From the NCBI GenBank assembly GCA_002722135.1, contig PBKJ01000008.1:27807-91806 (forward strand): 64,000 nt of DNA, in the 5' to 3' direction. Below the pieces are notes generated by a model, which saw only the letters and a list, made by a program, of their open reading frames with translations, did not search any database and was not told the origin of the DNA. Made by a program: the position numbers and the translations under genes. Each line of letters begins with the position of its first letter. Position 1 is the stretch's first letter. The stretch comes from Methanobacteriota archaeon (GTDB taxonomy: Archaea; Thermoplasmatota; Poseidoniia; Poseidoniales; Poseidoniaceae). Positions 24,701 through 40,657 of the stretch are shown here, one piece after another.

Positions 24701-27700
24701 GGGGCAGCCGCAGGAGCGGTTTCTGGCGCAGGTGCTGCAGCCGGCGCAGGGCCAGGTGCCGGCGCTGGAGGTGCAGACCCGCTTTCTCCGCCCGTCATCC
24801 GCTGGATGTAACCCACCATGTGGTTGAGCGTCGGGCGGTCTGAGAGCAGGAAGTCCTCGTCAACGGGCAGCGAGAAGCGCGCTCGGATGTCGGCCATGAT
24901 CTCGGCCTGCTTGACCGTGTCAATGCCCAATTCGCCTTCGAGGTCCTGGTCCATTTCGATGAAGTCGGCCGGGTAGCCGGTGTGCTCCACCACGACCGCC
25001 ACCACGGTGTCCACGAGGTCACCTGCATCGGCCGTGGGAACGGCAGCGGCTGGTGCTGGGGTTGGGGAAGGTGCCGAAGTCGCCGCAGGTGCAGCCTCGA
25101 CCGTTGCCGCAGGAGCGGGCTCTGGAGCCGGAGCAGGACGGTCCACAGCCGCTTCGGCTGCTGGGGCCGGAGCGCCGCCTTGCATGCGCGTCAGGTACGC
25201 CAGCATGTGGTTGAGCGTCGGATGGTCGGAGAGCACGAAGTCCTCATCAACGGGCAGCGAGAACCGGTCCCGAAGCGCCGCCATGATTTCGGCTTGCTTG
25301 ACCGTGTCAATGCCAAGTTCACCCTCGAGGTCCTGGTCCATTTCGATGAACTCTGCAGGGTAGCCTGTGTGTTCGACGACCACTTCAATCATGGCAGCAG
25401 CGACCTCTTCGTCGCTTGCGTTCATGGTAACCTGGGCTGTCGGGGCGGCGGTGGCTGCAGGCTCGGGGGCGGCTTGCGGTGCAGGCTCAGGAGCAGGTGG
25501 GGCTTCCGGTTCCTCGACCACGCCTTCGAAGGGAGCGCTTGGACCCCATGCCTCGCCTTGCACCCCGCCATGGAGGTTGCTTTCCCCGTCGACATACGCG
25601 ACCAAGGTGTTGTTCTTGATGCGCAGCACGACGTCGTTCGTGCCTGCAAGACGCCGGTTCCATGCCAGCACGGCCCGACCGTTCACGCGCTCACCTTCGA
25701 CCGGCCAGCGTCGCACCAGCGAGAGGGCAATTTGTGAACCAAATCCAGCACCGAAGCGGATGCCGTACTCGATGCCGTCAACGTCTCCACCCTTGCTGAG
25801 GTTGAGGTTGCCCAGCTCTGGATCCACTTCTTTGTGGTTGGCAATGGGTGGGAAGCGGCGGTGATGGAGGCCATGAATCATGCTCGCATCTTCAATGCCG
25901 ACGCCCATCGGATGCCCCGTGAAGCCCTTGGTGTTGGCAATCAGGATCTTGTCCGTGCTTTCGCCAAAGGTCGTTCTGAGCGCTTTGACCTCCGACTGAG
26001 CCGAACCACCGCGTGCGGGTGTGTAGGTTTCATGCGAGAAGAAGACCGTGTTCGGTGCCATCGTATGCCGATCAAGACCCCACGTGCGCTCCATCTGACC
26101 GACGAATCCATCGACGGTTTGCGCCACGTGTTCAACGTCGAGACGGGTCCCGTGGAAGGCGGAATTCGCCATTCGGGTCCCGAGCAATTCAGCATAGGGC
26201 TGAACGCCACGCTCCGCCGCTTCGGCGTTTCGCTCCACCACGAAGGCGGCGGCTCCCATGCCGAGGATCAAGCCGTTGCGTCGCCGGTCGAACGGCAGGG
26301 CTGCTTCTTCGATGACGTTGCTTGAGGATGCGGCCCCAGAGGCGGCAAAACCAGCTCCGATCCACGACCAGAGTTCTGGACTGGTCACGTTGTCTGAAGA
26401 GATGATGACCACGCGGTCCGCGCGGTCGTTGGCCAACCAATCCTCTGCGATGCTGAACGCCGCCGTTGCGGAGGCACAGGCGACGTTGATGGTGGAGTTG
26501 GGCCCTCGGATACCGGTATGCTGGGCGAACTGGGCATGGCCCATGTTGAGCACTTGGAAGAGGAAACGACGGTCGAAGCGACCGTCGGCATCTGCACCGT
26601 TGTTTCGTGCATGTCCGAACGAGGCCGTGGTGCCTGGGAAACATGAGGCAAACACCACACCGGTCCGCTCACGCTGGTGTTGTGGAACTTGCCAGCCACG
26701 GATGAGCCGAAGACCACCTTTGCCCACCTGCTCCTCGGGCGTGAGCGGGATGGCGGCGTCCCGCAAAGCGAGCAAGCCGGACGCCACGGCCAGTTGCGTG
26801 GTGATGTCCCATGCCAGCACGGCCTTCGGATCCACGCCGAATTCCTCAGCGAGATCGAAGGCGTGAGCCACACCGGCCAGTTGAGGGATGTCGCCGAAGG
26901 TTTCTGCGGGAGACATGTCCACTGAACCGTCACGGCCCTTGACGAGCCGCACGATGTTCCGATCGAGCAGCGCCTGCTTGTAGGCGTCCGACACTTCTTC
27001 GATGCAGGTCTCGCCTCGCACCAAGCGCTCAAACACGTCCTCATCGAAGACGCGTTCTCCGCCGGGGAGGCCGAGGGACACACCGGTGATCACGTAGGGG
27101 TTGGCTCTCCGGTCGGCCATCGCATCGTGCACGACGGTTGCACCCGTGACCGCCTCCACTGGGCGACGGGTTGCGGGCGCAGCGGGGCTCCAGCTCGACG
27201 GCGGAGCGCGGACCGCTCGGACCAATTCGGCCGGCGTCCGTGCGGACGCGATGTCCACTTCGCCGTCCAGCGGGGCCTCTGCCCGAAGGCGTTGCACGAC
27301 GGAAGCCACCTTGGCATCGTCCAGACCGAGTCCTGTCCGTAGGTCCACGGCTCCGCGGCAGAAGCGGGCAGGGTAGCCGCACACCGCAGCAAGACGATCA
27401 CCGACGTAGGCGGCAATGGCCTCAGCAGGGTCGGAAGGCGTCGCGGCGGGAGCAACGACGGCCTGCGCGGCGACGGGCGTACCGCCGCTGGAAGGCAACG
27501 GACGAGCGCGGGTGCGCAGGTCCTCGTGTTCCTGTGACGAGCGAGCGGGTTGCAAGGGCGACGAGGACCACGCTTCCAACGGTCCGGCGCGGAAGGCTTC
27601 GGTGAGCGCCGGGCTTGCGCCGTCAGGCATCGTGGCGACACGCCCGGCCAGAGCCAACATGCCCAATGCGGAAAGGAAGCTGGCGATGCCGCCTTGCTTC

Positions 27701-30537
27701 GGATGGTTGGTCATCACCGCAACGTGCGGCTTGCCTTCGAGGATTTGCGTGGCGAACACCGTCAGCGCTCGCTTTGGACCGACCTCGACGAAGGCACCCG
27801 CACCGGCAGCCGCCATGGTCTCGATTTGAGCGGTCCACTCGACCGATGAGGCCATTTGTGGTGCGAGCTTTTCCAGCACGGCCGCCTTGGCGTTGTCGCC
27901 TTCCATCGCGTAGAAGGTCCCGTCAACGTTGGCCGTGATGGGGATGGTGGGCCACTGGAGATCGAGTTCCTCGAGGAAGGCGCGGAGCGGTGCGTTCGCA
28001 GGTGCGACGATTTTGGAATGGAACGCGTGGGAGGTTTGCAGAACGGTGCACGGCATGCTTTCTGCTTCAAACGCGGCCATAGCGGCCTTCACCGGCTCGG
28101 TTTCGCCGGCGATGACGGTCATCTTCGGCGAGTTCTTGTTGGCGGAGATGACGTAACCGTCCGTGGCCTCAAGGATGCGCTCAACGTCAGCGAGCGGTGC
28201 GCTGACCGAAGCCATCAGGCCCTGATCGTCAATTTCAACCGAGCCCATTTCCGTTCCACGGGCAGCGGCCGCGCGAAGGGCGCTGTCCATGTCCATGATG
28301 CCGGCCGACATCAGGGCCGCGTATTCGCCAAGCGAATGGCCTGCGACCATGTCGGGTTTGAGGCCGTGATCGTTGAGGGCACGCTCGATGGCCAGATCGG
28401 CCGTCAACATGGCAGGTTGGGTGTATTCGGTCCGCTTGAGCTTCGCTTCAGCGTCCTGGATTTCTTCCTTGGACAAGTTGCTTCGCAGCACAAAGGAAGA
28501 GAGCGTCTCGCCGTCCAGCACATCAACCATGGTCTCGTCAGCCAAACGCCAGACGTCCTGAACCGCCGTGAAGCGCTGCCAGAGGTCGTGGGTCATCCCA
28601 ACGTATTGGCTGCCTTGACCGGGGTACATGTGGGCGACTTTGGCTTGGGGGGGCATGGCGGGTTGGTCGGTGATCATCACGCCTTGGGCCCCAAGGAAGC
28701 CCCAACGGGCGGGATCGGACAGGGATGAAGCGGCGAGGCCCTTTCGCTTTTCGAATTCGGCCCACGACGTGGCCACGACCGCGAGCCGAACGGCCGCGTT
28801 CACGTCGAAACCTGTGGACCACGTCGGGAAGACGGCGGACAGCCGATGCCCCCGAGGGTCCTCGTCGAAGGTCGGACCGTCGACGCTGAGTGCCGCGAGG
28901 CGAGCCGCGACGGCTTCGACGCTGTCGCCAGAGAGCAGCAGGACGCCACCTTCGACGGACTTGAGGGCCGCGTGGCCCAGCGAAGGGGTGGCGGTGGCGT
29001 CGAGGATGGACGCCGCTTCGGGCGCCGAAGGCGCGCCAGCGTAGGCGTCCCAACGGGACGACCACGTCTCGCCCATGGCCGCGTGAACCTCGGGGTCGTA
29101 GGCCTCGAGGGCGACGTGGAAGTTGGTGCCGCCAAAACCGAAGGCGCTGACGCCAGCACGGCGCGGATGGCCCGCAGGTTGAGGCCAAGCCATGGGCTCC
29201 GTGGGCACAAAGAAGGGATTGGTCGACCAGTCCACCGTTGGGTTCGGTGTTTCAAAGCCCGCACTCGGCGGAATGGTCGCATGGTGCAGGGCCATCGTGA
29301 CTTTGAGCAGCCCCGCCATGCCGGCGGCTGCTTTGAGGTGGCCAATTTGGCTCTTGATGGAGCCCACAGCAACGTTGTCGCCGGCCTCGATGTCCGTCCA
29401 CAAGGTGCCGAGGGTGGACAATTCAGTGGCGTCGCCGACCTTGGTGGACGTCCCGTGGGCCTCGACCAATTCCACAGAGGACGGGGCATAACCCGCCTGG
29501 TTGTAGGCACGAGCAATCGCCTGAATCTGGCCGCGCTGCGACGGGGCAGTGATGCCCTTGCCACGGCCATCGGATGAACCGCCGATGCCACGGATGACCG
29601 CGAAGACTTCGTCGCCGTCTCGGACCGCATCGCTCAGGCGCTTGAGCACCATGGCTCCTGCACCCTCGCCCATGACGAAGCCGTTGGCACGCGCATCGAA
29701 CGGCGTGGAGTGGCTCGGAGACAGCGCCCCAATGGCGCTGAACTTGGCGTAGGTGGCAGGGTCCATCGTCCGGTCCGAAGCACCGCAGATCATCGCGTCG
29801 ACTTGGCGCGCGTGCAGCAAACGGCAGGCGTCGAGCAAGGCCGCAAGCGAGGACGCACATGCGGCGTCCATGGCATGGTTGGGCCCCTGCAGATCGAGCA
29901 GGTTGGCGACGCGGCCTGACACGACGTTGGCAAGCTCACCCGGCATGGTGTCCTCGGTGATTTTCGGAGCGCCTTCGACCATGGCGTCCACGAAAGCGTC
30001 GCTCGCGGAGGCGGCAAGGCCTGCTTCGATGGCCAAGGCTCGGTTGTGTTCTGCCCAGACCCGCTGGTTGGATTCGTTGCGGTTTTCACCGCCGAGGGCG
30101 TTGGCAAAGACCACGCCAACTCGGCTGCGGTCGAGCGGGCGGCCTTCGTCGCCGTAACCTGCGTGCTCCAAGGCTGACGCAGCCACTTCGACCGCCCACA
30201 GCTGACAAGGATCGATCTGAGCCAGGGTTCCCGGCGGTTGCCGCCATCGGCGCCAATCGAATTCGAAGCCTTCGACGAAGGCGCCGATTTTCGCATAGGT
30301 GCGGTTTTGCTCAACGTTTCCAGGTGAACCCTCGGCCCAGAAGTGTTCGATTGGGCCCGGCCATCGGCCCTCGGGCAGGTCACGGATGCTGACGTGTGCG
30401 TCGATGATGTTCTGCCAAAACGTCGCGGCATCCGCTGCATCGGGCATCAGGGCCGAGCAACCGATGATGGCGATGGGTTCGAAGGGGCCCTGGTCGGTCC
30501 CGCCGACCTCTTTTCCGTCCGCTGTGGTGATCGTCAT
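21712..30537 (-). CDS. Multidomain iterative fatty-acid/polyketide synthase (PUFA-synthase-like)
   Basis: A 2941-residue type I synthase. Order: ketosynthase KS1 (Cys ~227 in DAACASS, His ~361 in EAHGTST, His ~400 in IGHLKAAAG); acyltransferase (GQGSQYVGM; GHSLGEYAAL, Ser ~735); a degenerate carrier-like segment (~1035-1110) with Asp where the serine should be; a second, divergent KS (Cys ~1354 in VACASATA); three tandem carrier domains (~1745, 1874, 1993), each with GIDTVKQAE; a ketoreductase (VSGGGSGVTAAA near 2312, Tyr ~2513); and a double hot-dog dehydratase (His ~2655 in DHAIDG). Enoyl reduction is supplied by FabI, encoded just upstream. The layout recalls PfaA-type omega-3 synthases fused with reductive domains. 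The product is unknown. Confidence 0.88.
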   Translation of the reverse strand: MTITTADGKEVGGTDQGPFEPIAIIGCSALMPDAADAATFWQNIIDAHVSIRDLPEGRWPGPIEHFWAEGSPGNVEQNRTYAKIGAFVEGFEFDWRRWRQPPGTLAQIDPCQLWAVEVAASALEHAGYGDEGRPLDRSRVGVVFANALGGENRNESNQRVWAEHNRALAIEAGLAASASDAFVDAMVEGAPKITEDTMPGELANVVSGRVANLLDLQGPNHAMDAACASSLAALLDACRLLHARQVDAMICGASDRTMDPATYAKFSAIGALSPSHSTPFDARANGFVMGEGAGAMVLKRLSDAVRDGDEVFAVIRGIGGSSDGRGKGITAPSQRGQIQAIARAYNQAGYAPSSVELVEAHGTSTKVGDATELSTLGTLWTDIEAGDNVAVGSIKSQIGHLKAAAGMAGLLKVTMALHHATIPPSAGFETPNPTVDWSTNPFFVPTEPMAWPQPAGHPRRAGVSAFGFGGTNFHVALEAYDPEVHAAMGETWSSRWDAYAGAPSAPEAASILDATATPSLGHAALKSVEGGVLLLSGDSVEAVAARLAALSVDGPTFDEDPRGHRLSAVFPTWSTGFDVNAAVRLAVVATSWAEFEKRKGLAASSLSDPARWGFLGAQGVMITDQPAMPPQAKVAHMYPGQGSQYVGMTHDLWQRFTAVQDVWRLADETMVDVLDGETLSSFVLRSNLSKEEIQDAEAKLKRTEYTQPAMLTADLAIERALNDHGLKPDMVAGHSLGEYAALMSAGIMDMDSALRAAAARGTEMGSVEIDDQGLMASVSAPLADVERILEATDGYVISANKNSPKMTVIAGETEPVKAAMAAFEAESMPCTVLQTSHAFHSKIVAPANAPLRAFLEELDLQWPTIPITANVDGTFYAMEGDNAKAAVLEKLAPQMASSVEWTAQIETMAAAGAGAFVEVGPKRALTVFATQILEGKPHVAVMTNHPKQGGIASFLSALGMLALAGRVATMPDGASPALTEAFRAGPLEAWSSSPLQPARSSQEHEDLRTRARPLPSSGGTPVAAQAVVAPAATPSDPAEAIAAYVGDRLAAVCGYPARFCRGAVDLRTGLGLDDAKVASVVQRLRAEAPLDGEVDIASARTPAELVRAVRAPPSSWSPAAPATRRPVEAVTGATVVHDAMADRRANPYVITGVSLGLPGGERVFDEDVFERLVRGETCIEEVSDAYKQALLDRNIVRLVKGRDGSVDMSPAETFGDIPQLAGVAHAFDLAEEFGVDPKAVLAWDITTQLAVASGLLALRDAAIPLTPEEQVGKGGLRLIRGWQVPQHQRERTGVVFASCFPGTTASFGHARNNGADADGRFDRRFLFQVLNMGHAQFAQHTGIRGPNSTINVACASATAAFSIAEDWLANDRADRVVIISSDNVTSPELWSWIGAGFAASGAASSSNVIEEAALPFDRRRNGLILGMGAAAFVVERNAEAAERGVQPYAELLGTRMANSAFHGTRLDVEHVAQTVDGFVGQMERTWGLDRHTMAPNTVFFSHETYTPARGGSAQSEVKALRTTFGESTDKILIANTKGFTGHPMGVGIEDASMIHGLHHRRFPPIANHKEVDPELGNLNLSKGGDVDGIEYGIRFGAGFGSQIALSLVRRWPVEGERVNGRAVLAWNRRLAGTNDVVLRIKNNTLVAYVDGESNLHGGVQGEAWGPSAPFEGVVEEPEAPPAPEPAPQAAPEPAATAAPTAQVTMNASDEEVAAAMIEVVVEHTGYPAEFIEMDQDLEGELGIDTVKQAEIMAALRDRFSLPVDEDFVLSDHPTLNHMLAYLTRMQGGAPAPAAEAAVDRPAPAPEPAPAATVEAAPAATSAPSPTPAPAAAVPTADAGDLVDTVVAVVVEHTGYPADFIEMDQDLEGELGIDTVKQAEIMADIRARFSLPVDEDFLLSDRPTLNHMVGYIQRMTGGESGSAPPAPAPGPAPAAAPAPETAPAAAPAPTPAPPSGDDGSIAARLVEVVVKHTGYPEDFIELDQDLEGELGIDTVKQAEIMADVRAIFDLPVDEDFLLSDHPTLNHFVAYVAKYSSGGGEASTTAPTSTAPAEAPSAVDAPSSMVAVGNRRWQVEVEPCSGQEAPLSLTGRILVTEDDWGVSAAVAHVLSEKGFDVVHIGLEPGAKSHRIQEEGERIVHRVDPASSEQMDAFVDAIGEGPLAGMIHLAPLRLASMAWSEESGPSQQVVLSGQAWFGLLKSLDSKLGALESGIVASVSAMDGRHGNRGDRFNALQAAAAGVTKSYAHERPALRCRAYDVHPDMLMDAEATAERLVDDLLNVGGEVEIGLDRAGERWTLVCFAEDLVEERTPLEETDVWLVSGGGSGVTAAAVIGVAAASKDAGASFHLLGRTPLMEVTEAWLDHDDATLESEKMALRERMIEASSSGKVTMVEWNRAWDRMMRSRDVQQTLASIQATGNLAQYHAVDVMDGKALTKLGANLGHAITGVVHGAGLEESKLVGDKTHEAFDRVVRVKVDGWSALMGAVEASGVRHPAFAACFTSVAGRFGNGGQTDYAAANSVLDAEMARLTASGACRAVAIGWTGWRDVGMATRGSIEAVFEAAGIETLPVDVGVDLFVDEALAGGKRRVLGCGSLGAMDTFSAFREAPLKLPPGMAGLIADPQRFPFIDKVVAFDEDARIITQTTLSTEMHPFLVDHAIDGVPYHPGVMALEMFAQNALLLKPGTALAGFRDVTFGLPVKIMRESMTVRVEASLSDASDGAHDVQCRLVSDLVSSSGEVFGEREHHTAVVRLVEQAEDLSAFFANELADMPDTGLAPAPGDLLHHPSFIYLRYFHGPRFQSHGGVLRGVQQDEHLGVDGLALMRHQLPAKDQFAIEAEGEAVLLEALPMLIEAGFQNAGLVAMESEGLSSLPVGIEWSTVLRVPDEGESLRMRSLCTGKEDGGITVHDVVIFGEEDDPVLALRGLRLKGMAPVPEDLAVSIDR
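24532..24594 (-). repeat. 63-bp direct repeat, copy in the third carrier domain
   Basis: This 63-base stretch is identical to 24889-24951, 357 bases away (119 codons, one carrier-domain period). It covers the phosphopantetheine-site helix. The first carrier domain is similar but not identical. Confidence 0.9.
24889..24951 (-). repeat. 63-bp direct repeat, copy in the second carrier domain
   Basis: Perfect partner of 24532-24594. Identity at synonymous positions points to a recent tandem duplication or ongoing gene conversion between carrier domains. Confidence 0.9.
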
Positions 30538-30546
30538 GCCCTCACC

Positions 30547-31338
30547 TCACTCCATGATGGTCTCCGGCACCATCGTGATCGAATAGCCTGCATCAACGTG
30601 AATCACCTGCCCGGTGACCCCTGCCGAAAGCGGACTTGCCAACCACAAGGTGGTCCCTGCCACGTCCGATTGCGTGACGTTTCTTCGAAGCGGCGCGTTG
30701 GACGCCACGTGATTCAGGATGTTGTCGAACCCGGGGATGCCCGAGGCAGCGATCGTTCGGATTGGACCTGAGGAAATCGCGTTCACGCGGTGGCCCTCCG
30801 GCCCAAGGTGACAGGCCAATTCCCGCGTCCAGCACTCAAGGGCGGCCTTGGCCATGCTCATGATGCCGTAGGACGGCACATATCGGGTGGAGGCAGCATA
30901 GGTCAGGGTGATCGTCGATGAACCCTCGGACAGGTATGGGAGTGCGTGCTTGAGGCACCGCTGCAGGCTGTTGGCGGAGATGGTCATCGCGGTGTTGATG
31001 TCGGCATCCTCGACGAAGAGGATCGGGCGATCGAAGCAGGTTCGCGGCGCGAAGCCGATGGCGTGGACCAAGATGTCGGCCTTCTTGCCCGGGTGTTCTG
31101 CGGCGAAGGCGTCGAAGAATTCCTTGGTGGAGGCATCTTCAGCGACATCCAAGGGGTAGAAGCCACCGATGGAAGGAAGTTGGTCCTTCAGTTTGAAGAT
31201 CCGGCTCATGAAGCGCTTCTGATAGCCGAGGTACAGCGTGCAGCCTGCCGCGGCCAGTTGTTGGCAAATGGCCCACGCGATGGAATCCTCGCTGGCCACA
31301 CCGAAGACGAAGGCTGTCTTTCCCTTGAGGTCCAGCAT
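30547..31338 (-). CDS. fabI: Enoyl-ACP reductase, FabI type
   Basis: A short-chain dehydrogenase of about 263 residues that reduces the enoyl-carrier intermediate in fatty-acid synthesis. The N-terminal cofactor loop is the FabI form (FVFGVASEDSIAWAI) and not the common TGxxxGIG. The catalytic pattern is Tyr-x6-Lys (YGIMSMAK), and ISSGPIRTIAASGIPGF, quoted partly as ISSGPIRT, is the FabI post-catalytic segment. The ATG at 31338 begins MLDLKGKT, the normal FabI start; an upstream ATG at 31353 is possible. It lies nine bases before the synthase and shares its strand, so it probably acts in trans as the missing enoyl reductase. Confidence 0.92.
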   Translation of the reverse strand: MLDLKGKTAFVFGVASEDSIAWAICQQLAAAGCTLYLGYQKRFMSRIFKLKDQLPSIGGFYPLDVAEDASTKEFFDAFAAEHPGKKADILVHAIGFAPRTCFDRPILFVEDADINTAMTISANSLQRCLKHALPYLSEGSSTITLTYAASTRYVPSYGIMSMAKAALECWTRELACHLGPEGHRVNAISSGPIRTIAASGIPGFDNILNHVASNAPLRRNVTQSDVAGTTLWLASPLSAGVTGQVIHVDAGYSITMVPETIME

Positions 31339-31439
31339 ACGCACACCCTCCATCGGTGTAGCCGGGCACACCGGCCTTTGACCATTCCCCCTGAAGAGGC
31401 CCGGAAAATGCGGGGACGTGACCCGAACAGGACCTTCCG

Positions 31440-32537
31440 TCACAGTCCGTCAAAATCAAACTCGTCAGGGCCGTCAAGATCGTCAAACATGCCGTCAAAC
31501 TCGTCGACTGGGGCGGCGGCGGCAACGGGAGCAGCAGCAACGGGCACGTCCGGCTCGTCGAGTTCGGTCACTTCCTCGAGTTCAGGGCCACTGGAACGGC
31601 GCACCAAACGGCCGACCACGAAGATGAGCAGGAAGAACACGACCACGCCCCCGCCAATGGCGGCATAGAGCTGAATCTGGTCTTGACTGAGTTCCTCAAG
31701 GCCACCTCCCACCAACGCGGCGTTGGTGGTGGCGGGCTGAACGACCACGGTGACGGTGGATTGCATCGGCTCGGCCGTGGCATCGTTGGTGCTCGTCGCT
31801 TCAAAGACCACTTGGACGCGGACCTCTTCGGTCACCTCAGACGGCGTGCGCAGCACAATGGTGCGCTCGGCTGAGGTCCCCTCGACCATGACGGTCTCGG
31901 CAACAAAACTGCCCTCGGGGAAGCTGAAACCGGCGCCTTCCAGTTCGGCAAGGTTGGCGATGTTCACCTCGATTTTGTCTTCGGCGTTGCCGTCGTTGCC
32001 CATGGTGAAGCCGATGCTGACCTCCTCGCTGACTTCGAGGTTCCGGGTGGAACGGTCGGTGAGGGTCAAGTCAACCTGGCCGAACGTTGCAATCGTCAAC
32101 TCACCGGAGTAGGTCGCAGATTGGTTCAGCTGGTCCACTGGGAGCACCATCACCGAGGTAATGGAAGCGGTGATGTCGAAGTCAAGGGAGAGGTCGGCCT
32201 CGATCCTCGGCGAGCCAGAGAAGGTCGCCTCAAACTCCTCTTCTGCACCTGCGGCGAGGGTGAATTCGTCCTCCGAAAGCGACATGTCCACACGAGGGTC
32301 ATCGTCCTGCCACTCGTAATCCACCGAGATGGTGGATTCCAGTTGGCCTGAATTTGACACGGTGCACGTGATGACCACATCCTCGTTTTCTGAGGGCGCG
32401 ACGTTGAGCTCTGGGTCGCCGTCACAGTCGATTTGGACGCCGATGCCGATTTGGGCCTGGGCGCTCGGGGCCGCTACGAGCAGCAGGGAAGCCAGCAGCA
32501 ACCCAACGGTCCACACAGCTCGTGAGGGGCGGCTCAT
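31440..32537 (-). CDS. Secreted surface protein with C-terminal membrane anchor
   Basis: A protein of about 365 residues. The signal peptide runs SRAVWTVGLLLASLLLVAA and ends at AQA. Two or three beta-sandwich-like units follow (NSGQ/GNDGNAED signatures typical of CARDB/NEW-type domains), then a single membrane helix (GGGVVVFFLLIFVVGRLV) and a very acidic cytoplasmic tail. It is probably part of the cell envelope; the ligand is unknown. The ATG at 32537 gives the cleanest signal peptide, with 32564 as alternative. Confidence 0.7.
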   Translation of the reverse strand: MSRPSRAVWTVGLLLASLLLVAAPSAQAQIGIGVQIDCDGDPELNVAPSENEDVVITCTVSNSGQLESTISVDYEWQDDDPRVDMSLSEDEFTLAAGAEEEFEATFSGSPRIEADLSLDFDITASITSVMVLPVDQLNQSATYSGELTIATFGQVDLTLTDRSTRNLEVSEEVSIGFTMGNDGNAEDKIEVNIANLAELEGAGFSFPEGSFVAETVMVEGTSAERTIVLRTPSEVTEEVRVQVVFEATSTNDATAEPMQSTVTVVVQPATTNAALVGGGLEELSQDQIQLYAAIGGGVVVFFLLIFVVGRLVRRSSGPELEEVTELDEPDVPVAAAPVAAAAPVDEFDGMFDDLDGPDEFDFDGL

Positions 32538-32591: not shown

Positions 32592-33470
32592 TCAGGCCCT
32601 GATGGAGGGCCCGTACAGGCGCTCAGGAAGGTCCACGTGTGCGCGATAGAGCACCTCGTCGTCCACACCGGCTTCGCTGAGTTGTCGGGTCCGCTTTGGA
32701 ACCGTCTTTGGTCCAAGCACCGCTCCGGGACGAGCCGGGTCGTCCATGTGGTCCGTCTCGAGCATGAACCCTTGACGGGCATCGTCCATCGTCTCCAACA
32801 GCACCGGCAGGGCCCCCTTTCCGCACAAAACGCTGGGGATGAGACCATGCGTGGACGATGCGCTGACGTCTGGAGGAGCGTAGTGACGAACGATGCGATC
32901 ACGAGGACAACCTTCCCGGTCGGCCATGTCAGCGAGTTCAGGATAGGTGGAGGCTTGCTCACCTTCGACGTGCAGCTGAAGCGCAAAGCCCTCGCGGCCG
33001 GCTCGACGCATGGTCCACGCCAACAACTCGTTCGAGAGGTCCCAAATGTCCTCGCTGACCGGCCAATGAGGGCGACCCACCTCGCCCACAGCGTGGGCCT
33101 TCCCTTCGTCAATGAAGGCCACGGCAGCATCGATGCTCGCGGTGTAGGCTTCGACGGCGCGAGCACGGCCGGCCTCGCCGTCGACCGACCACGCCTCGAA
33201 TTGATGGGCGAAGGCGGCCGGGTGTGGCCCGAGGACCACACGCACGCCAAGGCCCACCGAAGCTCGCACCTCTTCTGCCATGGCAATCGTGTCAGCGTAC
33301 GCCGCGCGATGTCCGGCCTCGTCCGTGGGCGGGGCAGCAAAATCGGGGCAATGAACGAGGACCAGATCGGTGCCACCTGCACGAGCAAAGTCCTCAGCTG
33401 CAGCGATGCAGCGGCCGTCGCGACGCAGGTGGAAGTGGTCGTCGGTCACCGGCCCTTGGTACGACGACAT
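32592..33470 (-). CDS. TatD-like metal-dependent hydrolase
   Basis: A 292-residue TIM-barrel amidohydrolase. Metal-ligand pieces are the N-terminal DDHFHLRRDG, a mid-protein GEVGRPHWP, LQLHVEG, then RHYAPP and the late ETDHMDD aspartate. The arrangement matches the archaeal branch of the TatD superfamily, which includes deoxyribonucleases and uncharacterised hydrolases. The stop of this gene is followed by the surface protein and its start is two bases beyond the stop of the TBP-like gene upstream. Confidence 0.78.
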   Translation of the reverse strand: MSSYQGPVTDDHFHLRRDGRCIAAAEDFARAGGTDLVLVHCPDFAAPPTDEAGHRAAYADTIAMAEEVRASVGLGVRVVLGPHPAAFAHQFEAWSVDGEAGRARAVEAYTASIDAAVAFIDEGKAHAVGEVGRPHWPVSEDIWDLSNELLAWTMRRAGREGFALQLHVEGEQASTYPELADMADREGCPRDRIVRHYAPPDVSASSTHGLIPSVLCGKGALPVLLETMDDARQGFMLETDHMDDPARPGAVLGPKTVPKRTRQLSEAGVDDEVLYRAHVDLPERLYGPSIRA

Positions 33471-33472
33471 CC

Positions 33473-34012
33473 TCAGGCCTCGCTCACGAAGGCTTGACGG
33501 CTCTCGATTTGCGTTCGCCAGTGGACGGCGGCCATCGCCACCATGTTCGGATGACGAGCTTCGGTGGCCACGGCCTTACCGTTGCTCCACAGGTGAATGG
33601 TCAGGCCGTGTCGCTCGTCGTTGATGCACACGCAGCCAAGCCGTTCGTCCACTTCGCCTTGCCCTGCCCCGAGATCGCCAGCAAGGCGCTCGATGTGCAC
33701 GGCTCGACGGTATTGGAAGGAGGCGATGATTGGGCCAAATTCCATGCTCAGTGAGGCGTCACTTGCACCAAGCCGAATCAGGATTTCTTTGGCCGCCGCT
33801 TGAGCCGCTTCCACACGGTGCGTGCCGTGAACGATGAGACGTCCCTCCGCATCAACGATGACCGTCGCCGACGGGCGGGTCAGGGCCACGACCACAAGCT
33901 CGCCTGCTCGGACACCGCCGAGGTCAGCCTCGACTCGGGCCTGGTCAACAGGCGTCGCAGGAATGAACCGAATGAGGCGGTTTTCCACACGAACGTCGAT
34001 TCCTTCGCTCAT
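33473..34012 (-). CDS. Divergent protein with TATA-binding-protein-like repeats
   Basis: A 179-residue protein, which is the size of archaeal TBP. Each half contains a strand-turn-strand-helix pattern like the TBP half-repeat: ATVIVDAEGRLIVHGTHRVE then an Ala-rich helix, and GLTIHLWSNGKAVATEARHP then another helix. In real TBP the corresponding words are of the type ATLIFxSGKxVxTGAKS. The TBP aromatic residues that kink DNA are not obvious, so it may be a TBP paralogue with altered DNA contact, or only share the fold. The ATG at 34012 follows the upstream stop by one base, so the gene is in an operon with the TatD-like hydrolase. Confidence 0.5.
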   Translation of the reverse strand: MSEGIDVRVENRLIRFIPATPVDQARVEADLGGVRAGELVVVALTRPSATVIVDAEGRLIVHGTHRVEAAQAAAKEILIRLGASDASLSMEFGPIIASFQYRRAVHIERLAGDLGAGQGEVDERLGCVCINDERHGLTIHLWSNGKAVATEARHPNMVAMAAVHWRTQIESRQAFVSEA

Positions 34013-34013
34013 G

Positions 34014-34802
34014 TTAGGCCTCCTCAAACGACGCGACGAGGTCGTCATATGAAACGATGACCTCGGCCGGAGGGCCCTCATTGAGCGCCTTCACCAGGGC
34101 GTCCACCCTCGGTTCGACCAGCACGAGAAGGAGCGTGGAACCCCCCGCCTTCCGCACCTCGGCCAAGGCACCTCGGGCCCGAGCGGCAAAGCGACGGTCG
34201 CGAGAAAGACGGGTGGTCACCGTCAGGTCTGCGTCCCACATCTGCCACCACGCGCGCGTGGAGACCATGACTTCGGCCATGCCGTCCTCTGGACCGGACG
34301 TGACCCCTGATGCAGCGTCCGACAGTGCCTTTCGCCACGCACGACGGCTGCGCACCCTTCGAATGAGCCGGCGCCAATCCGTCCGTTCCTTCGCCTCAAG
34401 CGAGAGGTGATCGGACCACGCCTCGTCGTCCAGGTTCGGCTCGAGGAAATACACTGATCGGTCAGAACGCTGTGCCTCGCGGAACAAGCGAAGCGGCTCA
34501 GGGTCAGGAAACCGACCGGTCAGGGGACCGTCGATGCTGGTGAGGGCATCGAGAAGATGCGCTTCATGCCCGATGCCAAATCGAGCCGCTTCGAGGTTGA
34601 CGCCGGGAGAGGCTCGCTCGTCCTCCTCCTCTTGCAACCACGCCTCCGGCGCTCCAGCATCGTCGAGCAGCGCAAGACCGTCCCACGCCTTCGGGTTTGG
34701 CCAGAGGCTGCGCGGCAGGACCACCGTGGGGAAGGTCCCGTGCAGGAGGATCGTCCCTCCGTCAGGATCTTCCCACGAAGCCGTGGACCAGCCACGGGTC
34801 AT
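34014..34802 (-). CDS. Hypothetical protein
   Basis: About 262 residues, rich in Trp, Arg and acidic residues, with no signal peptide or membrane helix. The central part (WRRLIRRVRSRRAWRKALSD) is strongly basic; the C-terminal half alternates hydrophobic strands and helices (TLLLVLVEPRVDALVKAL) like an alpha/beta domain. I do not recognise a family. The ATG at 34802 lies eight bases after the stop of the giant surface protein; the ATG at 34832 would overlap that gene. It is co-directional with the TBP-like and TatD-like genes. Confidence 0.7.
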   Translation of the reverse strand: MTRGWSTASWEDPDGGTILLHGTFPTVVLPRSLWPNPKAWDGLALLDDAGAPEAWLQEEEDERASPGVNLEAARFGIGHEAHLLDALTSIDGPLTGRFPDPEPLRLFREAQRSDRSVYFLEPNLDDEAWSDHLSLEAKERTDWRRLIRRVRSRRAWRKALSDAASGVTSGPEDGMAEVMVSTRAWWQMWDADLTVTTRLSRDRRFAARARGALAEVRKAGGSTLLLVLVEPRVDALVKALNEGPPAEVIVSYDDLVASFEEA

Positions 34803-34810
34803 GGTCAGGC

Positions 34811-37800
34811 TCACTCCTGGCTGTTGACCCACTCAAGCAGGGAGGGAATGTCCCAACCTTGGTCGAAGTACCCCTGGATTTGCTCTTGCGTCCATTGTGG
34901 GAAGGTCTTCATCGCTTCCGCCATTTGCGGACTGACGTCAGCAGCAGGCGCGCTGGCCGGGATGTTCACGACTTGCTTGGTGTCTTGTTCCTCGTAATCG
35001 TCGTATTCGTCATCGTCGTCCACGACCGAGCCGCCACCGCCTCGGCGGAGGAGCACCATCACAAGGGTGGCCAACACGGCGACCACACCGACCAAACCGA
35101 CGAGCAAGAGGGCCATGGCCCCGCCTTGGCCTTCGTCGCTCTGGACCTTGACGTTGATGAGGCCGCCCGCGGTTTCGCTTCCGTTGTAGAGCAGTTCACC
35201 GCTGACCTCGTCATAGATGAGGTAATACAGACCGGTTGTTGGGGTCAGGTAGGCTTCGAGGGTGATGGATTCCCAAGCGGTAGCACCGATGCCCAACTCT
35301 TGCGAGGTGTGCACGGTTTCACGGGAAGCGATGCCGTCGTAGACGCCCATCACGCGCAGGTCAACGGTTCCAGCAAGGCTGCCGGTGTTTTGCAAGTAGA
35401 CCTCGAGGGTCATTTGCTGTCCGACCTCGGGCTGCGCAGGGTCAAAGCGCACCGTGCCGACGGTGAAGACCGCTTCTTCGTTGATCAGGTTGTACTGCGA
35501 CGTGGCCTCATCGGAATTGCCGTTGATTGGAACCACGTTGCCGTCAGAGGTGGGGCCACCACCGAGGATTGAGGATCCTGCGGAATCGGTGCCGTACACC
35601 CAGAAGATGACGCGGACACCGGCCATTTGAGCGGCCGAGGGCTCAACGGGGTCAGGCCAAAGGTCGATGCAATCCGCCGAAGCGTAGTATTCACCGACAC
35701 CTTTCACGAGGCTCACCGGGGTCGAGAGGGGGCCGGCTCCGAAGGCCTGACCGTAGACGGGCCAGGTAAGCCCCGTGCTTGGGTCGGCGTAGAACTGCCA
35801 GCGGATCTCCACTTCGTCCTCGAGCAACTTCTCAGGCTCTTCGATGGTCACGACCGCGTCAACGCAGTGGAGCACCGAGGAGGGCAGGTCTTCGCCAAGG
35901 GCGTCTTCGGTTCCGCCCTTGGTCAACTCCCAGCTGTTGCTGGCCACCTTGGGGGCGTTGAAGTCCACCTTGAGCGTGAACTCAGCGCAACCGTAGCCGT
36001 CGAAGTCACCACAATACGCGTCCGTCGCGTCCGTCGCTCCCGTGGGCATGTCAATGAGGCGGAAGGTGTACACGAATTCGTTGGTCACGGGCGGTGCGGT
36101 GATGTTGAAATCGAACACGCCGCCGGTGAAGGTCTCGGTCCACACCTCACCTTGGTATGGGATGTAATCCTTCCCGGGTTCACTGACCTTGGCCGCAGCC
36201 TGGCGGGTGATTTCCATCGTGAGGGGGATCTCAGGCTGAATCGAGACGCCGTTTGCCAAACCGGCCACGTAAGCGTAGCGGCCTTCGAAGCGGATGGTGT
36301 CGCCAGGGCCCACAAAGCCGACCTGGACGTCGTTGGTCACGGGTTCGGTCTGGTCAGAGATGTAGGGAATTTCCATGATGCCAGCGTTGAGGTCTGCGCG
36401 GAAGTCAAGCCTCACGCCGTCGGCATACATCCAGTCTTGGAGGTGTCCAGAGAGACCGAGGTAATTCTGGATGACGTTGTCGAAGTCCTGGATGCTCACC
36501 TTTGGCGTGCTGGCACCGACGTGGCCAGGAATGCCCCATGCCAGGCGAACTGGGAGGTCGAGGTAGAAGGTGCTCTCGAACGGATCGATCAGCGCACCAC
36601 CGTCCATGCGGCGCAGGCTCGGCGAGAGCTCGTCGTCGTCGACGATGGTCAGGTAGGGCGACGTGGTCCACGCCGTGCCGTTTCGCGGGTGGAAGTTGAT
36701 GACCATGTCTTCCGAGGAGGCTCCGTCGAGGTTCACGCGGATGGTGTCGAGGTCACGCCAGCCGTTGCCGTCCTGGGCCTCGACGATCACGTGGTAGGTG
36801 TTGCCTGCATAGACCGTCTTGTTCTCAAGGCCCTGATAACCGGGGTCGGTCGAACGCATGAAGCGCAGCCCATTGGCGTCCTCGATGTAGACGTTGTTGA
36901 TGACCGGCGTGGCCGAACTCATGGAGACGTAGGTCACGTAGTCGTTCTCGAAGCCAGCTGAGCCCCCATCGATGGAGTTGCCTGCGAGGTCAAAGCCCTC
37001 AATCCAAACGCTCACCTTGCCCACGGGATCGCGCCCGAGGTTGGCTTCGTCGTTGAATTGGGCGATGTAAGAGGCGTTTGGAGCACCACCGTCGCTGTTC
37101 AGGGTCACCATCGTGTATTCTTGGGGATCGGCTTCGCCGTCACCGTCGGTGTCGTGTTCGTACTCCACCCAAAGGTGCATCGTCATGGTCTCCGGCGGCG
37201 AGGGCAGGTCCTGCGCGATAAGGCGCATCTGCTGGGTTGCAGAAGGAATCACCCAAGTGTCGTCGTACACGCGACGCCAGTTCTCTGGCAGGTCGGCTCC
37301 GCCAAGGAAGACCGACATGGAAAGGAGGTTGGGCTCGTAGGTGTCGATGGAGAGGTTGAACGGCACCGCGCAATCGTCGTCCGGTCGCAATTCAGCACCG
37401 GGACAAAGCGTGTCGCCACCCTCGTAGCCGGCCATGCGAACACGGAGGATTTCGTCCCCAGCAGCGCCCTGGCCAAGGTCGATGGGCCACGAAATGTCCC
37501 CACCGATGGGGCCACTGATGTTGTCGATCTCGGTCCATCCGATGGTGATGTTCCCGTCGATGTTGTCCACGGTCTGCTGTTCCAGCACGAGGTTGTAGGC
37601 GGAGGGATCGGGTGCGACGTCAAGGTCCTGCAAGCGGACGCTCATGTCGATGGTCATGTAGCGGGTGGAAACCGCGTCGTCGAGGTCCTGAACCTCGGCG
37701 TTGGCGTTGAGCACCTGCAAACTGGTGATGCTGGCGTCGTTCTCGATGGCGTTGCCTTCGCTGGGGTCAAAGAGGACCGCAGCGGGGAGGCCATCGACGC

Positions 37801-40657
37801 CGTTCGCACCGACGCTGAAGGCGTAGAGGCGCAGGGTGTCCGCGTCTTCCCAAGCGGGGTTCACGCGGAAGCGCCAGGTGATGTCCTTGCCCGCAGGGCT
37901 CGTGGTGTCCACCACGGTGGAGGTTTCCAACGTCAGGTAGTTGCCCGGGTCAGCGCGCTTCTCGAACCCGGTCACTTCGGACCACGCCACTTCGACGGTT
38001 CCGGTCGAGGATTCGAAGAGCAACACGGCCTCAGCGAGCGTGGTGCCCGTGGCGCCGTCGACCGCGTGGGTGCTGGTCACCTCGTAGATCTCGCCCGAGG
38101 GGTAGAGACCAACAGGACTGCCGGTGACGGTCATCGTGCTGTCGTATCCCGACGCGGTGCTGACGCTGAGGTCGGCAAAGCGCACCGCACCACCGTTGCT
38201 GGTGTACACCGCGAAGGGGATGTCCGCCGTACCCGTGCCTTGGGCCAGCGCCACGCCCTGATTCAGTTCGCGGTCGAAGCCGTCGGACTCGTCGAAGGTG
38301 CGCTCCCAGTCGTACAGGATGTCGAGGTCACGGACCACAAGCGAACTGCCCGTCGAGGCGTTGAGGCTCTCAAGTTCGAAGCGGAAGGACACCCACTGGT
38401 TGCCGTAGTCGTCCTCGAAGGCGAAGGGCACTTGCGGGTCGTTCAGGAGGTTGTTGATGGCGTCGGCCAAGCCGATCGGCGTCCCTCCGATGGTGGGCAT
38501 GATGCGCGTCGCGTTCGGCATGGCGCCGAGGTCTTCGCTCAAACCACCGACGGCGAGCATCAGGTCGAAGCCCTCACCTGCGTCGGTCGTGGAGTAAATG
38601 GTGTTCTGATCGAAGACGATGTCCGCGGCCGTGACGGTCGCACCGTAGGGCAGCACGAAGCCGCCGCCGACCGCTTGCGCAGCAAGGTTCAGCGTCATCG
38701 TTTTGCTGTCCACACCGGTGTGCACATCGCCAATCTTGGCGTTGTAGAACATGGTCTGACGACCAAGCGCACCGAAGGCGGGCTGGTCAAAGGCCCAGTC
38801 GATGTCACCGTCGTTGGCCAGGTCCACGCGAACGTCGTTGGCGTGGTGTCCAAAGCGGAGGTCGAACCAAATTTCTGAGACCCTACAATCAAAGAAATTG
38901 TTCGCGGGGTCGAAGTTGAAACTGATCAAGGCCTCGAAACCGAACATTGGGCTGCTGAGTTGATTCCACTGGTCCACAACAATGTCCTCAGGAAGATCTT
39001 GCTCGATGGTGGACAACTGGATGTCTGGGGCTTCCGAACACTCTCGGTTGACGGTGGGCTTGATGGCCACGATGGGATGATCGAAGTTGATGCGCTCGAT
39101 GGAAGGTGAGAATCCGGTGTCCACCAAGGTCGGCTGGTAAGCGTAGGGGCCGGCCATCGCGTTCCACGCGCCTCCGTAGATTTCCGGATTGGCCAAATCG
39201 GTTTGGTTGAATCCGGTTCCGATACGCGTTCCAATGTTGAACCCGTGCAGCACGGCCGTGGAAAGTCGATCCGGGCCTGAGTCGAAATTGAACATGAAGT
39301 CCAGTGACTTGTGGACGTTGGCGTCGATGTTCCATAGCTCGATGATGTCCCCGGTCAAGCCCGACATCGGGTTGCCGTCAAGGTCGTTGACCAACAGCCC
39401 GGTCTGGGTGTTGTAGACGTCCACGTTGAGGGTCCCCGTCTGGGTGGTCTCGAGCTCCATGTTGAGCAGCCCGTAGCCGTTGGGTTGTGGGTCTCCTCCG
39501 TTCACAGAAGGAAGGAAGCCGCGGACCTTCATCCAGCCGTTTGCAGGCAGGAGTTGGCCCAAGCGAACGTTGTCGATGTACCAGCCAGGCATGGTGTAGT
39601 TCGTCGGCGTGTTGCCGTTGCCGCCCACGTTGTTGTGCTCCATGACGAAGCGGAGTTGCACCCACTGACCCACGTAATCGGTCAAATCGATGGCGATGTC
39701 TGCCCACCCGCTGGGGTTGTTGGTGCTCACGGACGTGCCACCAAGGGCGGATTGGGTCGAACCAACGCCCTGGCAGCCGCTCTGGATTTGACCCTGGTTG
39801 TTGCCCTTCGTGTACAGCCCGTTTCCAAAGCCAATGTTGGAGGAGTTGGCTTGGTCGACAGGGATGTAGTTGAACGCGTTTGGACCGCTGGTGTCGGGAG
39901 GGAAGAACTCGTCGTTGCGCTCTCGAATTTCGATGTACGCACAGTCGCGGTAGTACTTCTGAACGCCGCCCGTTCCGGACTCGAGGTAGTTCAAGGCGTG
40001 GAAGGAGGAAAAGCGGAAGGTGGTCCCCCCCATCGCGGGGTCAACGAAAATCGCAGGCGACAACAAACTGCTGTCGAACGCGTTTCCGTTGTTGTCGTCA
40101 CGGTAATCGTCGTCGAAGGGGTTGGTGCCCCAGCACATCTCACCAGACTTGCAGCCGGTTGGGAGGATGCCGAGCGAGGAGGAAATGCTGCCGTGACCCC
40201 ACGACATGGGGCTCATGGGCGGCTGCGTGCCGTCGGTGAAGTTCTTCGTGGTGCCCTCAAAATCGCTAAGGAAACCGTTCGACGTCAGGCGAACAGGCGT
40301 GGCATCTGACCCGTCTTCGAACTGGAAAGAGGACTTGGCCGAGAAGGAGGTCAGCTGCCCGTTGGCGTCGGGGCTCCACGTCTTCGGGAGGGTCTCGGTG
40401 TCGATCCTCACGAAAGCATCGTGCTCGGCCATGGCCGTGCCCACGGTCATCGAGGCCGACGTCACGGTCTCACCGGCAGGGAGCGTCACGGACGCATCAT
40501 CGAGGTCCAACCACGTCGCAGGGTCGCGAACATCGACCACGGCCTCGGCATCTCCACCGCTAAACGTGGTGACGTTGATGGAGGACGCGAGAGGGACGAG
40601 GAGAAGCATGGCCATCATCAAGAGGGCGGGCAAGCGGCGGGGGGCATTTGCGTTCAT
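34811..40657 (-). CDS. Giant cell-surface protein with C-terminal anchor
   Basis: A 1948-residue secreted protein. It starts with a signal peptide (LPALLMMAMLLLVPLASS) and continues as a long series of beta-rich domains. An early region (about residues 200-370, with SGWADIAIDLTDYVGQWVQL and PGWYIDNVRLG) resembles MAM/jelly-roll adhesion modules. No protease motif was found. Near the end a single helix (MALLLVGLVGVVAVLATLVMVLL) precedes an acidic stretch (DDDDEYDDYEEQD) and a short cytoplasmic end with WTQEQIQGYFDQGWD. It is likely a surface-layer, adhesion or substrate-binding protein. A CTAAAAG box lies 38 bases upstream of the ATG. Confidence 0.82.
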   Translation of the reverse strand: MNANAPRRLPALLMMAMLLLVPLASSINVTTFSGGDAEAVVDVRDPATWLDLDDASVTLPAGETVTSASMTVGTAMAEHDAFVRIDTETLPKTWSPDANGQLTSFSAKSSFQFEDGSDATPVRLTSNGFLSDFEGTTKNFTDGTQPPMSPMSWGHGSISSSLGILPTGCKSGEMCWGTNPFDDDYRDDNNGNAFDSSLLSPAIFVDPAMGGTTFRFSSFHALNYLESGTGGVQKYYRDCAYIEIRERNDEFFPPDTSGPNAFNYIPVDQANSSNIGFGNGLYTKGNNQGQIQSGCQGVGSTQSALGGTSVSTNNPSGWADIAIDLTDYVGQWVQLRFVMEHNNVGGNGNTPTNYTMPGWYIDNVRLGQLLPANGWMKVRGFLPSVNGGDPQPNGYGLLNMELETTQTGTLNVDVYNTQTGLLVNDLDGNPMSGLTGDIIELWNIDANVHKSLDFMFNFDSGPDRLSTAVLHGFNIGTRIGTGFNQTDLANPEIYGGAWNAMAGPYAYQPTLVDTGFSPSIERINFDHPIVAIKPTVNRECSEAPDIQLSTIEQDLPEDIVVDQWNQLSSPMFGFEALISFNFDPANNFFDCRVSEIWFDLRFGHHANDVRVDLANDGDIDWAFDQPAFGALGRQTMFYNAKIGDVHTGVDSKTMTLNLAAQAVGGGFVLPYGATVTAADIVFDQNTIYSTTDAGEGFDLMLAVGGLSEDLGAMPNATRIMPTIGGTPIGLADAINNLLNDPQVPFAFEDDYGNQWVSFRFELESLNASTGSSLVVRDLDILYDWERTFDESDGFDRELNQGVALAQGTGTADIPFAVYTSNGGAVRFADLSVSTASGYDSTMTVTGSPVGLYPSGEIYEVTSTHAVDGATGTTLAEAVLLFESSTGTVEVAWSEVTGFEKRADPGNYLTLETSTVVDTTSPAGKDITWRFRVNPAWEDADTLRLYAFSVGANGVDGLPAAVLFDPSEGNAIENDASITSLQVLNANAEVQDLDDAVSTRYMTIDMSVRLQDLDVAPDPSAYNLVLEQQTVDNIDGNITIGWTEIDNISGPIGGDISWPIDLGQGAAGDEILRVRMAGYEGGDTLCPGAELRPDDDCAVPFNLSIDTYEPNLLSMSVFLGGADLPENWRRVYDDTWVIPSATQQMRLIAQDLPSPPETMTMHLWVEYEHDTDGDGEADPQEYTMVTLNSDGGAPNASYIAQFNDEANLGRDPVGKVSVWIEGFDLAGNSIDGGSAGFENDYVTYVSMSSATPVINNVYIEDANGLRFMRSTDPGYQGLENKTVYAGNTYHVIVEAQDGNGWRDLDTIRVNLDGASSEDMVINFHPRNGTAWTTSPYLTIVDDDELSPSLRRMDGGALIDPFESTFYLDLPVRLAWGIPGHVGASTPKVSIQDFDNVIQNYLGLSGHLQDWMYADGVRLDFRADLNAGIMEIPYISDQTEPVTNDVQVGFVGPGDTIRFEGRYAYVAGLANGVSIQPEIPLTMEITRQAAAKVSEPGKDYIPYQGEVWTETFTGGVFDFNITAPPVTNEFVYTFRLIDMPTGATDATDAYCGDFDGYGCAEFTLKVDFNAPKVASNSWELTKGGTEDALGEDLPSSVLHCVDAVVTIEEPEKLLEDEVEIRWQFYADPSTGLTWPVYGQAFGAGPLSTPVSLVKGVGEYYASADCIDLWPDPVEPSAAQMAGVRVIFWVYGTDSAGSSILGGGPTSDGNVVPINGNSDEATSQYNLINEEAVFTVGTVRFDPAQPEVGQQMTLEVYLQNTGSLAGTVDLRVMGVYDGIASRETVHTSQELGIGATAWESITLEAYLTPTTGLYYLIYDEVSGELLYNGSETAGGLINVKVQSDEGQGGAMALLLVGLVGVVAVLATLVMVLLRRGGGGSVVDDDDEYDDYEEQDTKQVVNIPASAPAADVSPQMAEAMKTFPQWTQEQIQGYFDQGWDIPSLLEWVNSQE

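What the first reader, a model, noticed from the sequence alone, without database searches (positions are those of the whole stretch)
33473..34012. TATA-binding-protein-like paralogue in an operon with a TatD-like nuclease
Both halves show the TBP half-repeat pattern, strand-turn-GRLIV/GKAVAT-helix, and the length fits, but the DNA-kinking aromatics are not apparent. It may be an alternative basal factor with changed specificity, or a non-DNA-binding relative.
Basis: inference. Interest (0 to 1): 0.6.

Follow-up and report, generated by a model that had tools for sequence, protein, structure and literature searches.

The report
Archaeal TBP relative with rebuilt DNA face
An order of abundant ocean archaea carries, besides its normal TATA-binding protein, a second member of that fold whose DNA-gripping surface has been rebuilt and which always sits in a three-gene operon with a DNA-repair-type nuclease, suggesting a transcription-factor fold reused for another nucleic-acid task.

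Summary
Window 33473-34012(-) encodes a 179-aa two-repeat TBP homologue ("TBPL"): Pfam TBP matches at E=8.7e-7 and in 29/29 relatives; the AlphaFold2 model (pLDDT 89) has TBP as its 44 best PDB matches. The genome has a separate canonical TBP. TBPL is in 95 of 97 sampled Poseidoniales genomes, one copy each, forming one clade on a very long stem. In 63/63 loci it lies between an undescribed ~270-aa protein and a TatD nuclease (the only TatD in this genome), abutting or overlapping. In 37 diverse members the first-repeat stirrup with its kinking Phe is deleted (37/37), the second kinking Phe is Asp/Glu (36/37), the third Leu/Ile/Val (37/37), the fourth Phe/Trp (37/37), and a DNA-contact Thr is invariant His; dN/dS is about 0.03-0.19. 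So the DNA face was rebuilt under selection, not merely lost, and ordinary TATA bending is unlikely. The upstream partner has a tentatively TraB-like fold. Best explanation (inferred, not shown): an accessory recognition or scaffold subunit of a TatD module, as the TBP-like domain is in RNase H3. Main rival: an alternative initiation factor working with the second TFB.

The parts
33473..34012 (-). TBPL: two-repeat TBP-fold paralogue, 179 aa
   Evidence: PF00352 E=8.7e-7; AF2 pLDDT 89; Foldseek: TBPs only at ranks 1-44
34014..34832 (-). Protein A, ~270 aa, first gene of the operon; no known family; tentative TraB-like fold without the TraB GTAH/GAGH motifs. GTG at 34832 is the longest reading; the conserved start may be ATG near 34802
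   Evidence: Conserved immediately upstream in 63/63 loci; no Pfam/PDB sequence hit; best two Foldseek hits are a TraB family protein, E 2.7e-3 and 2.9e-3
32592..33470 (-). TatD-family nuclease (HxH class), the only TatD of this genome
   Evidence: PF01026 E=1.7e-18; only copy in the genome; metal ligands HxH, E, H, H, D kept in 63 loci (one unreadable residue)
33896..33907 (-). Residues A36-L39, site of the shortened first stirrup: four residues (canonical E/Q-F-P-G) including the first kinking Phe are absent here
   Evidence: Deleted in 37/37 diverse members
33968..33970 (-). R15 codon, near-invariant, predicted on the concave face of repeat 1
   Evidence: face assignment is inference from strand alternation
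33851..33853 (-). D54 codon, at the second kinking Phe position (F116 yeast / F210 human)
   Evidence: D25, E11, N1 of 37
33827..33829 (-). H62 codon, at DNA-contact Thr124 (yeast numbering)
   Evidence: His in 37/37, entropy 0
33638..33640 (-). L125 codon, at the third kinking Phe (F190 yeast / F284 human)
   Evidence: L27, I7, V3 of 37
33587..33589 (-). W142 codon, at the fourth kinking Phe (F207 yeast / F301 human): the one aromatic kept
   Evidence: F22, W15 of 37

Best explanation
Shown: TBPL is a TBP-fold paralogue separate from the canonical TBP, conserved through the order Poseidoniales and encoded in a fixed operon A-TBPL-TatD. Shown: the residues by which TBP kinks TATA DNA are replaced by a different, conserved set (first stirrup deleted, one Phe to Asp/Glu, contact Thr to invariant His, another Phe to Leu/Ile/Val, the last Phe kept as Phe/Trp). 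Inferred: it does not bend TATA boxes or nucleate ordinary initiation. Inferred: it acts with protein A as a non-catalytic recognition or scaffold subunit of the TatD nuclease, using the rebuilt concave face of repeat 1 (R15, T50, D/E54, H62) and the remaining aromatic to hold a nucleic-acid end, lesion, RNA/DNA hybrid or a partner protein.
For: Operon in 63/63 loci covering two families and all 21 sampled genera, genes mostly overlapping by 4 bp or a few bp apart. TatD active site intact and the only TatD in the genome. Protein A not found outside Poseidoniales in the class-wide search. Rebuilt, constrained face. Canonical TBP present in 97/97 genomes, so TBPL is not needed as the TBP. Precedents: the TBP-like domain of RNase H3 binds RNA/DNA hybrid with Glu27, His28, Tyr43 and Gly52 on its sheet and aids that nuclease (PMC4132731); TBP-like domains fused to RNase LS toxins (PMC3710099); TatD enzymes are 3'-5' exonucleases and AP endonucleases (PMC10085689).
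Against: No complex, binding or activity has been measured; operon linkage is indirect evidence. TatD orthologues in related lineages stand without TBPL or A, so TatD chemistry does not need them. TBPL is neutral to acidic (pI about 6 in the window), not obviously a nucleic-acid binder. RNase H3 resemblance is functional analogy; no residue-level homology was tested.
Confidence: 0.4

Rival explanations
1. TBPL is an alternative initiation factor with changed promoter specificity that works with the second, divergent TFB of Poseidoniales, comparable to metazoan TRF2/TBPL1 or the poxviral TBP-like factors.
For: Most Poseidoniales genomes have two TFBs, one divergent. Poxviral VITF-3l intercalates Ile instead of Phe and still recognises promoters (PMC12917281), so L125 and W142 could act likewise. 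Multiple TBP/TFB sets exist in haloarchaea (PMC2121645, abstract).
Against: Repeat-1 stirrup deleted and an acidic residue at a kinking-Phe site. The repeat-2 stirrup, which carries TFB contacts in known complexes (established knowledge), has a deletion and lost its PG. In genus g13 TBPL is present where only one TFB or none was detected (G005, G042, G013), though missed divergent copies or incomplete genomes could explain that. The operon partner is a nuclease, not a transcription gene.
Confidence: 0.2
2. TBPL regulates the canonical TBP or TFB by direct contact, for example as a saddle-to-saddle heterodimer or decoy that blocks DNA binding.
For: TBPs can dimerise through the concave face (PDB entry 1vok is a TBP dimer). 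An acidic concave face is what inhibitors of TBP use (established knowledge of TAF1 TAND and similar DNA mimics).
Against: No interaction data; no reason for the fixed TatD linkage; canonical TBP barely changes (branches 0.02-0.05) while TBPL diverges 0.2-1.2 per column, giving no sign of co-evolution.
Confidence: 0.15
3. The operon is only a transcriptional unit: TBPL has an unrelated role (for example binding a small ligand or protein) and is co-transcribed with TatD by history.
For: Genomes are compact, and further neighbours are conserved in many loci. TatD stands alone in sister lineages.
Against: Outer neighbours were recovered in fewer loci (47 or fewer of 63, some loci being too short to show them), whereas the three-gene core was complete in all 63, from both families.
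Confidence: 0.2

Closest known systems
Archaeal TATA-binding protein (PF00352; 1pcz, 1ais, 2z8u, 1mp9)
   Same: Two-repeat saddle fold, length, sequence homology over the whole protein
   Different: First stirrup shortened, three of four kinking Phe lost, contact Thr to His, Asn159 lost; NCBIfam TBP models score 21 bits or less against cut-offs of 181-316
Metazoan TRF2/TBPL1 (TBP-related factor)
   Same: A TBP paralogue beside the canonical TBP, with a conserved TATA-contacting Phe changed to Trp (PMC7221094)
   Different: TBPL1 keeps most TBP signature residues and works in initiation; TBPL here lost most DNA-contact residues and sits with a nuclease
RNase H3 (HIII) N-terminal TBP-like domain
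   Same: TBP-fold module next to a nuclease; His, acidic and aromatic residues on the sheet (PMC4132731)
   Different: Single-repeat domain fused to an RNase H in bacteria; TBPL is a separate two-repeat protein, nearest to true TBP, beside TatD
Divergent upstream TBPs of tandem TBP pairs in other Thermoplasmatota (L158-L162, L165-L167)
   Same: Divergent archaeal TBP paralogues; best-scoring non-Poseidoniales matches to the TBPL profile
   Different: Keep stirrups and most kinking Phe, adjacent to canonical TBP, no TatD or protein A next to them was found; orthology to TBPL unresolved (p-AU 0.051)
TatD nuclease, HxH class (TATDN3/YcfH/YjjV type)
   Same: The operon's third gene has the family fold match and all metal ligands
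   Different: Linked to TBPL and A only in Poseidoniales among the lineages looked at

Membership tests
TBP superfamily (descent and fold) | Significant match to the TBP profile | tested here: met
   PF00352 above cut-off in the window protein, matched by 29/29 relatives
TBP superfamily (descent and fold) | Bipartite saddle fold | tested here: met
   AF2 pLDDT 89, Foldseek ranks 1-44 all TBP
Functional TATA-binding protein | Two pairs of DNA-kinking Phe | tested here: not met
   One deleted (37/37), one D/E/N, one L/I/V, one F/W
Functional TATA-binding protein | Symmetric minor-groove Asn and Thr contacts | tested here: not met
   Asn69 kept in 22/37, Asn159 never; Thr124 is His in 37/37, Thr215 kept in 9/37
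Functional TATA-binding protein | Passes the curated TBP equivalog cut-off | tested here: not met
   20.8 bits against 270
Functional TATA-binding protein | Binds and bends TATA DNA, recruits TFB | not testable with these tools
   Needs EMSA, FRET or in vitro transcription
RNase H3 N-domain type hybrid-binding module | Single TBP repeat fused to an RNase H catalytic domain | tested here: not met
   Two repeats, separate ORF, neighbour is TatD
RNase H3 N-domain type hybrid-binding module | Binds RNA/DNA hybrid | not testable with these tools
   Needs binding assays
TatD nuclease (third gene) | Family profile and metal ligands HxH, E, H, H, D | tested here: met
TraB/PrgY/GumN (protein A) | TraB fold | tested here: inconclusive
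   Top two Foldseek hits are a TraB family protein but E 2.7e-3, TMq 0.41, rmsd 17 A; profile comparison not significant
TraB/PrgY/GumN (protein A) | Profile match to PF01963 | tested here: not met
   No match in any of 28 members; window genome has none

The most novel reading that the evidence does not exclude
A TBP duplicate left transcription and became the substrate-recognition subunit of a three-protein nuclease module (A-TBPL-TatD) fixed in the ancestor of all Poseidoniales: an independent, two-repeat counterpart of the RNase H3 TBP-like domain, derived from TBP itself.
Probability: 0.3. Interest if true: 0.75.

Novelty: new variant of a known kind. Interest (0 to 1): 0.55.

Why it matters
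TBP is among the most conserved transcription proteins, and archaeal paralogues are normally read as alternative initiation factors. Here a whole order of abundant marine archaea keeps, beside an almost unchanging TBP, a faster-diverging but selected TBP-fold protein in which the DNA-bending residues are replaced in a consistent way, tied to a TatD nuclease. It makes testable whether the TBP fold can move from initiation to repair or RNA/DNA processing after duplication. I found no report of this protein or operon in nine searches of the open-licence library available; that is a limited search.

Tried and rejected
Chance resemblance: rejected. This being the canonical TBP: rejected, that lies at G000:C17. 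Decaying pseudogene: rejected by dN/dS and invariant residues. Defence system: no PADLOC match for the three proteins. Phage gene: no match in phage records; a viral-contig scan with alignment A2 could not run because no stretch was conserved enough. Known family for protein A: none by Pfam, PDB sequence or NCBIfam; TraB by profile comparison not significant; viral fold library gave nothing. TBPL as clear orthologue of the divergent TBPs in tandem pairs of other Thermoplasmatota: unresolved; the free tree does not join them, and forcing them together is borderline (p-AU 0.051). TBPL outside Poseidoniales: nothing of comparable score (97 bits or more inside, 43.5 or less outside). TatD-TBPL-A operon in sister lineages: not found.

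Full report
Observation. The ORF at 33473-34012(-) encodes 179 aa. Pfam's TBP model matches at 8.7e-7, above its curated cut-off, with two stretches, and all 29 diverse relatives match it too. A profile of the family aligns over positions 3-174 with the P. woesei TBP 1pcz. The AlphaFold2 model has mean pLDDT 89, and Foldseek against the PDB gives TBP chains for ranks 1-44, with TM-scores on the query of 0.69-0.80.

Genome context. Relatives' contig titles place the window in Poseidoniales, Marine Group II archaea. A canonical TBP lies elsewhere in the genome (G000:C17), and 97/97 sampled Poseidoniales genomes have a strong TBP match. TBPL is in 95 of 97 genomes, one match each, in 21 of 21 genera. 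In a phylum-wide search Poseidoniales score 97 bits or more and all others 43.5 bits or less. In a tree of 43 TBPs, TBPL is one fully supported clade on a very long stem. Its parent among TBPs is unresolved: the divergent upstream members of tandem TBP pairs in other Thermoplasmatota are not joined to it in the free tree, and forcing them together is borderline (p-AU 0.051).

Operon. In all 63 loci long enough to examine (62 plus the window; at least one pair, L033 and L091, is probably the same contig from two collections) the order is protein A - TBPL - TatD on one strand, mostly overlapping by 4 bp or a few bp apart. In the window the gaps are 1 and 2 bp. Protein A (about 270 aa) has no Pfam family and no PDB sequence relative. 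In the class-wide search it appeared only in Poseidoniales and not in the listed genomes of family f3, another order of the class. Its model (pLDDT 86) has as its two best PDB matches a Tetrahymena respiratory-complex subunit that the PDB names 'TraB family protein'. The match is weak and profile comparison with archaeal TraB is not significant, so TraB-like is tentative; the TraB GTAH and GAGH motifs are not seen. The TatD gene is the only TatD of the genome. Its metal ligands HxH, E, H, H and D are kept in the 63 loci apart from one unreadable residue; this is the HxH class described in PMC10085689. TatD orthologues in f3 and in f16/f34 genomes stand without TBPL or A, so I infer that the other two genes joined an existing TatD gene in the Poseidoniales ancestor.

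The DNA-binding face. Against canonical TBPs, 37 diverse TBPLs show the following. The repeat-1 stirrup lacks four residues including the kinking Phe in 37/37. The second kinking Phe is D25/E11/N1. The repeat-2 kinking Phe positions are L27/I7/V3 and F22/W15. The contact Thr124 is His in 37/37. Asn159 is never kept; Asn69 is kept in 22/37. The repeat-2 stirrup is one residue shorter and has lost its Pro-Gly. The most constrained positions include H62, P47, G93, G145, T50 and R15. By strand alternation R15, T50, D/E54 and H62 should lie on the concave face of repeat 1; that is inference, since I had no coordinates to measure. TBPL dN/dS is about 0.03-0.19 where synonymous divergence could be estimated. 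The surface is therefore maintained by selection rather than decaying. Meanwhile the canonical TBP of the order hardly changes.

Mechanism. TatD enzymes are 3'-5' exonucleases and AP endonucleases linked to DNA repair (PMC10085689). The TBP-like N-domain of RNase H3 binds RNA/DNA hybrid through Glu27, His28, Tyr43 and Gly52 on its sheet and enhances substrate binding by that nuclease (PMC4132731). TBP-like domains are also fused to some RNase LS-family proteins, where the authors read them as hybrid binders (PMC3710099). I therefore think TBPL most likely serves as a recognition or scaffold subunit in a TatD module; this step is inference (confidence 0.4). The main counter-argument is that poxviral TBP-like factors keep promoter function with Ile in place of Phe (PMC12917281), and that most Poseidoniales have a second, divergent TFB, so an alternative initiation pair remains possible (0.2). 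A regulator of TBP/TFB (0.15) and a merely historical linkage (0.2) are also open.

Membership and novelty. By descent and fold it belongs to the TBP superfamily. It is not a functional TATA-binding protein by the DNA-contact features tested, and NCBIfam TBP models score it far under cut-off. There is no PADLOC match, and no paper holding both 'Poseidoniales' and 'TATA-binding' is in the library searched. I rate it a new variant of a known kind.

Noticed in passing
L158, L159, L160, L161, L162, L165, L166, L167: Other Thermoplasmatota (families f16 and f34) carry TBP as a tandem pair: a divergent TBP directly upstream of, or overlapping, the canonical one.
   Followed up: partly
L096:10298-10912 and L168-L197: The canonical TBP of Poseidoniales has a variable, often acidic insert in the second repeat between the first strand and helix, absent from P. 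woesei TBP.
   Followed up: no
L201:730-1800 (G000:C13): A second, divergent TFB (zinc-ribbon and two cyclin repeats) is present in most Poseidoniales genomes beside the canonical TFB.
   Followed up: partly
window 34811-40657 (-): A 1948-aa putative secreted or surface protein with a C-terminal hydrophobic segment; its end overlaps the longest reading of protein A, so the operon could be co-transcribed with it here.
   Followed up: no
window 21712-31443 (-): A 2941-aa polyketide/PUFA-synthase-like megasynthase preceded by an enoyl-ACP-reductase-type SDR (PF13561 E=2.9e-70); domain reading of the large protein is by eye only.
   Followed up: no
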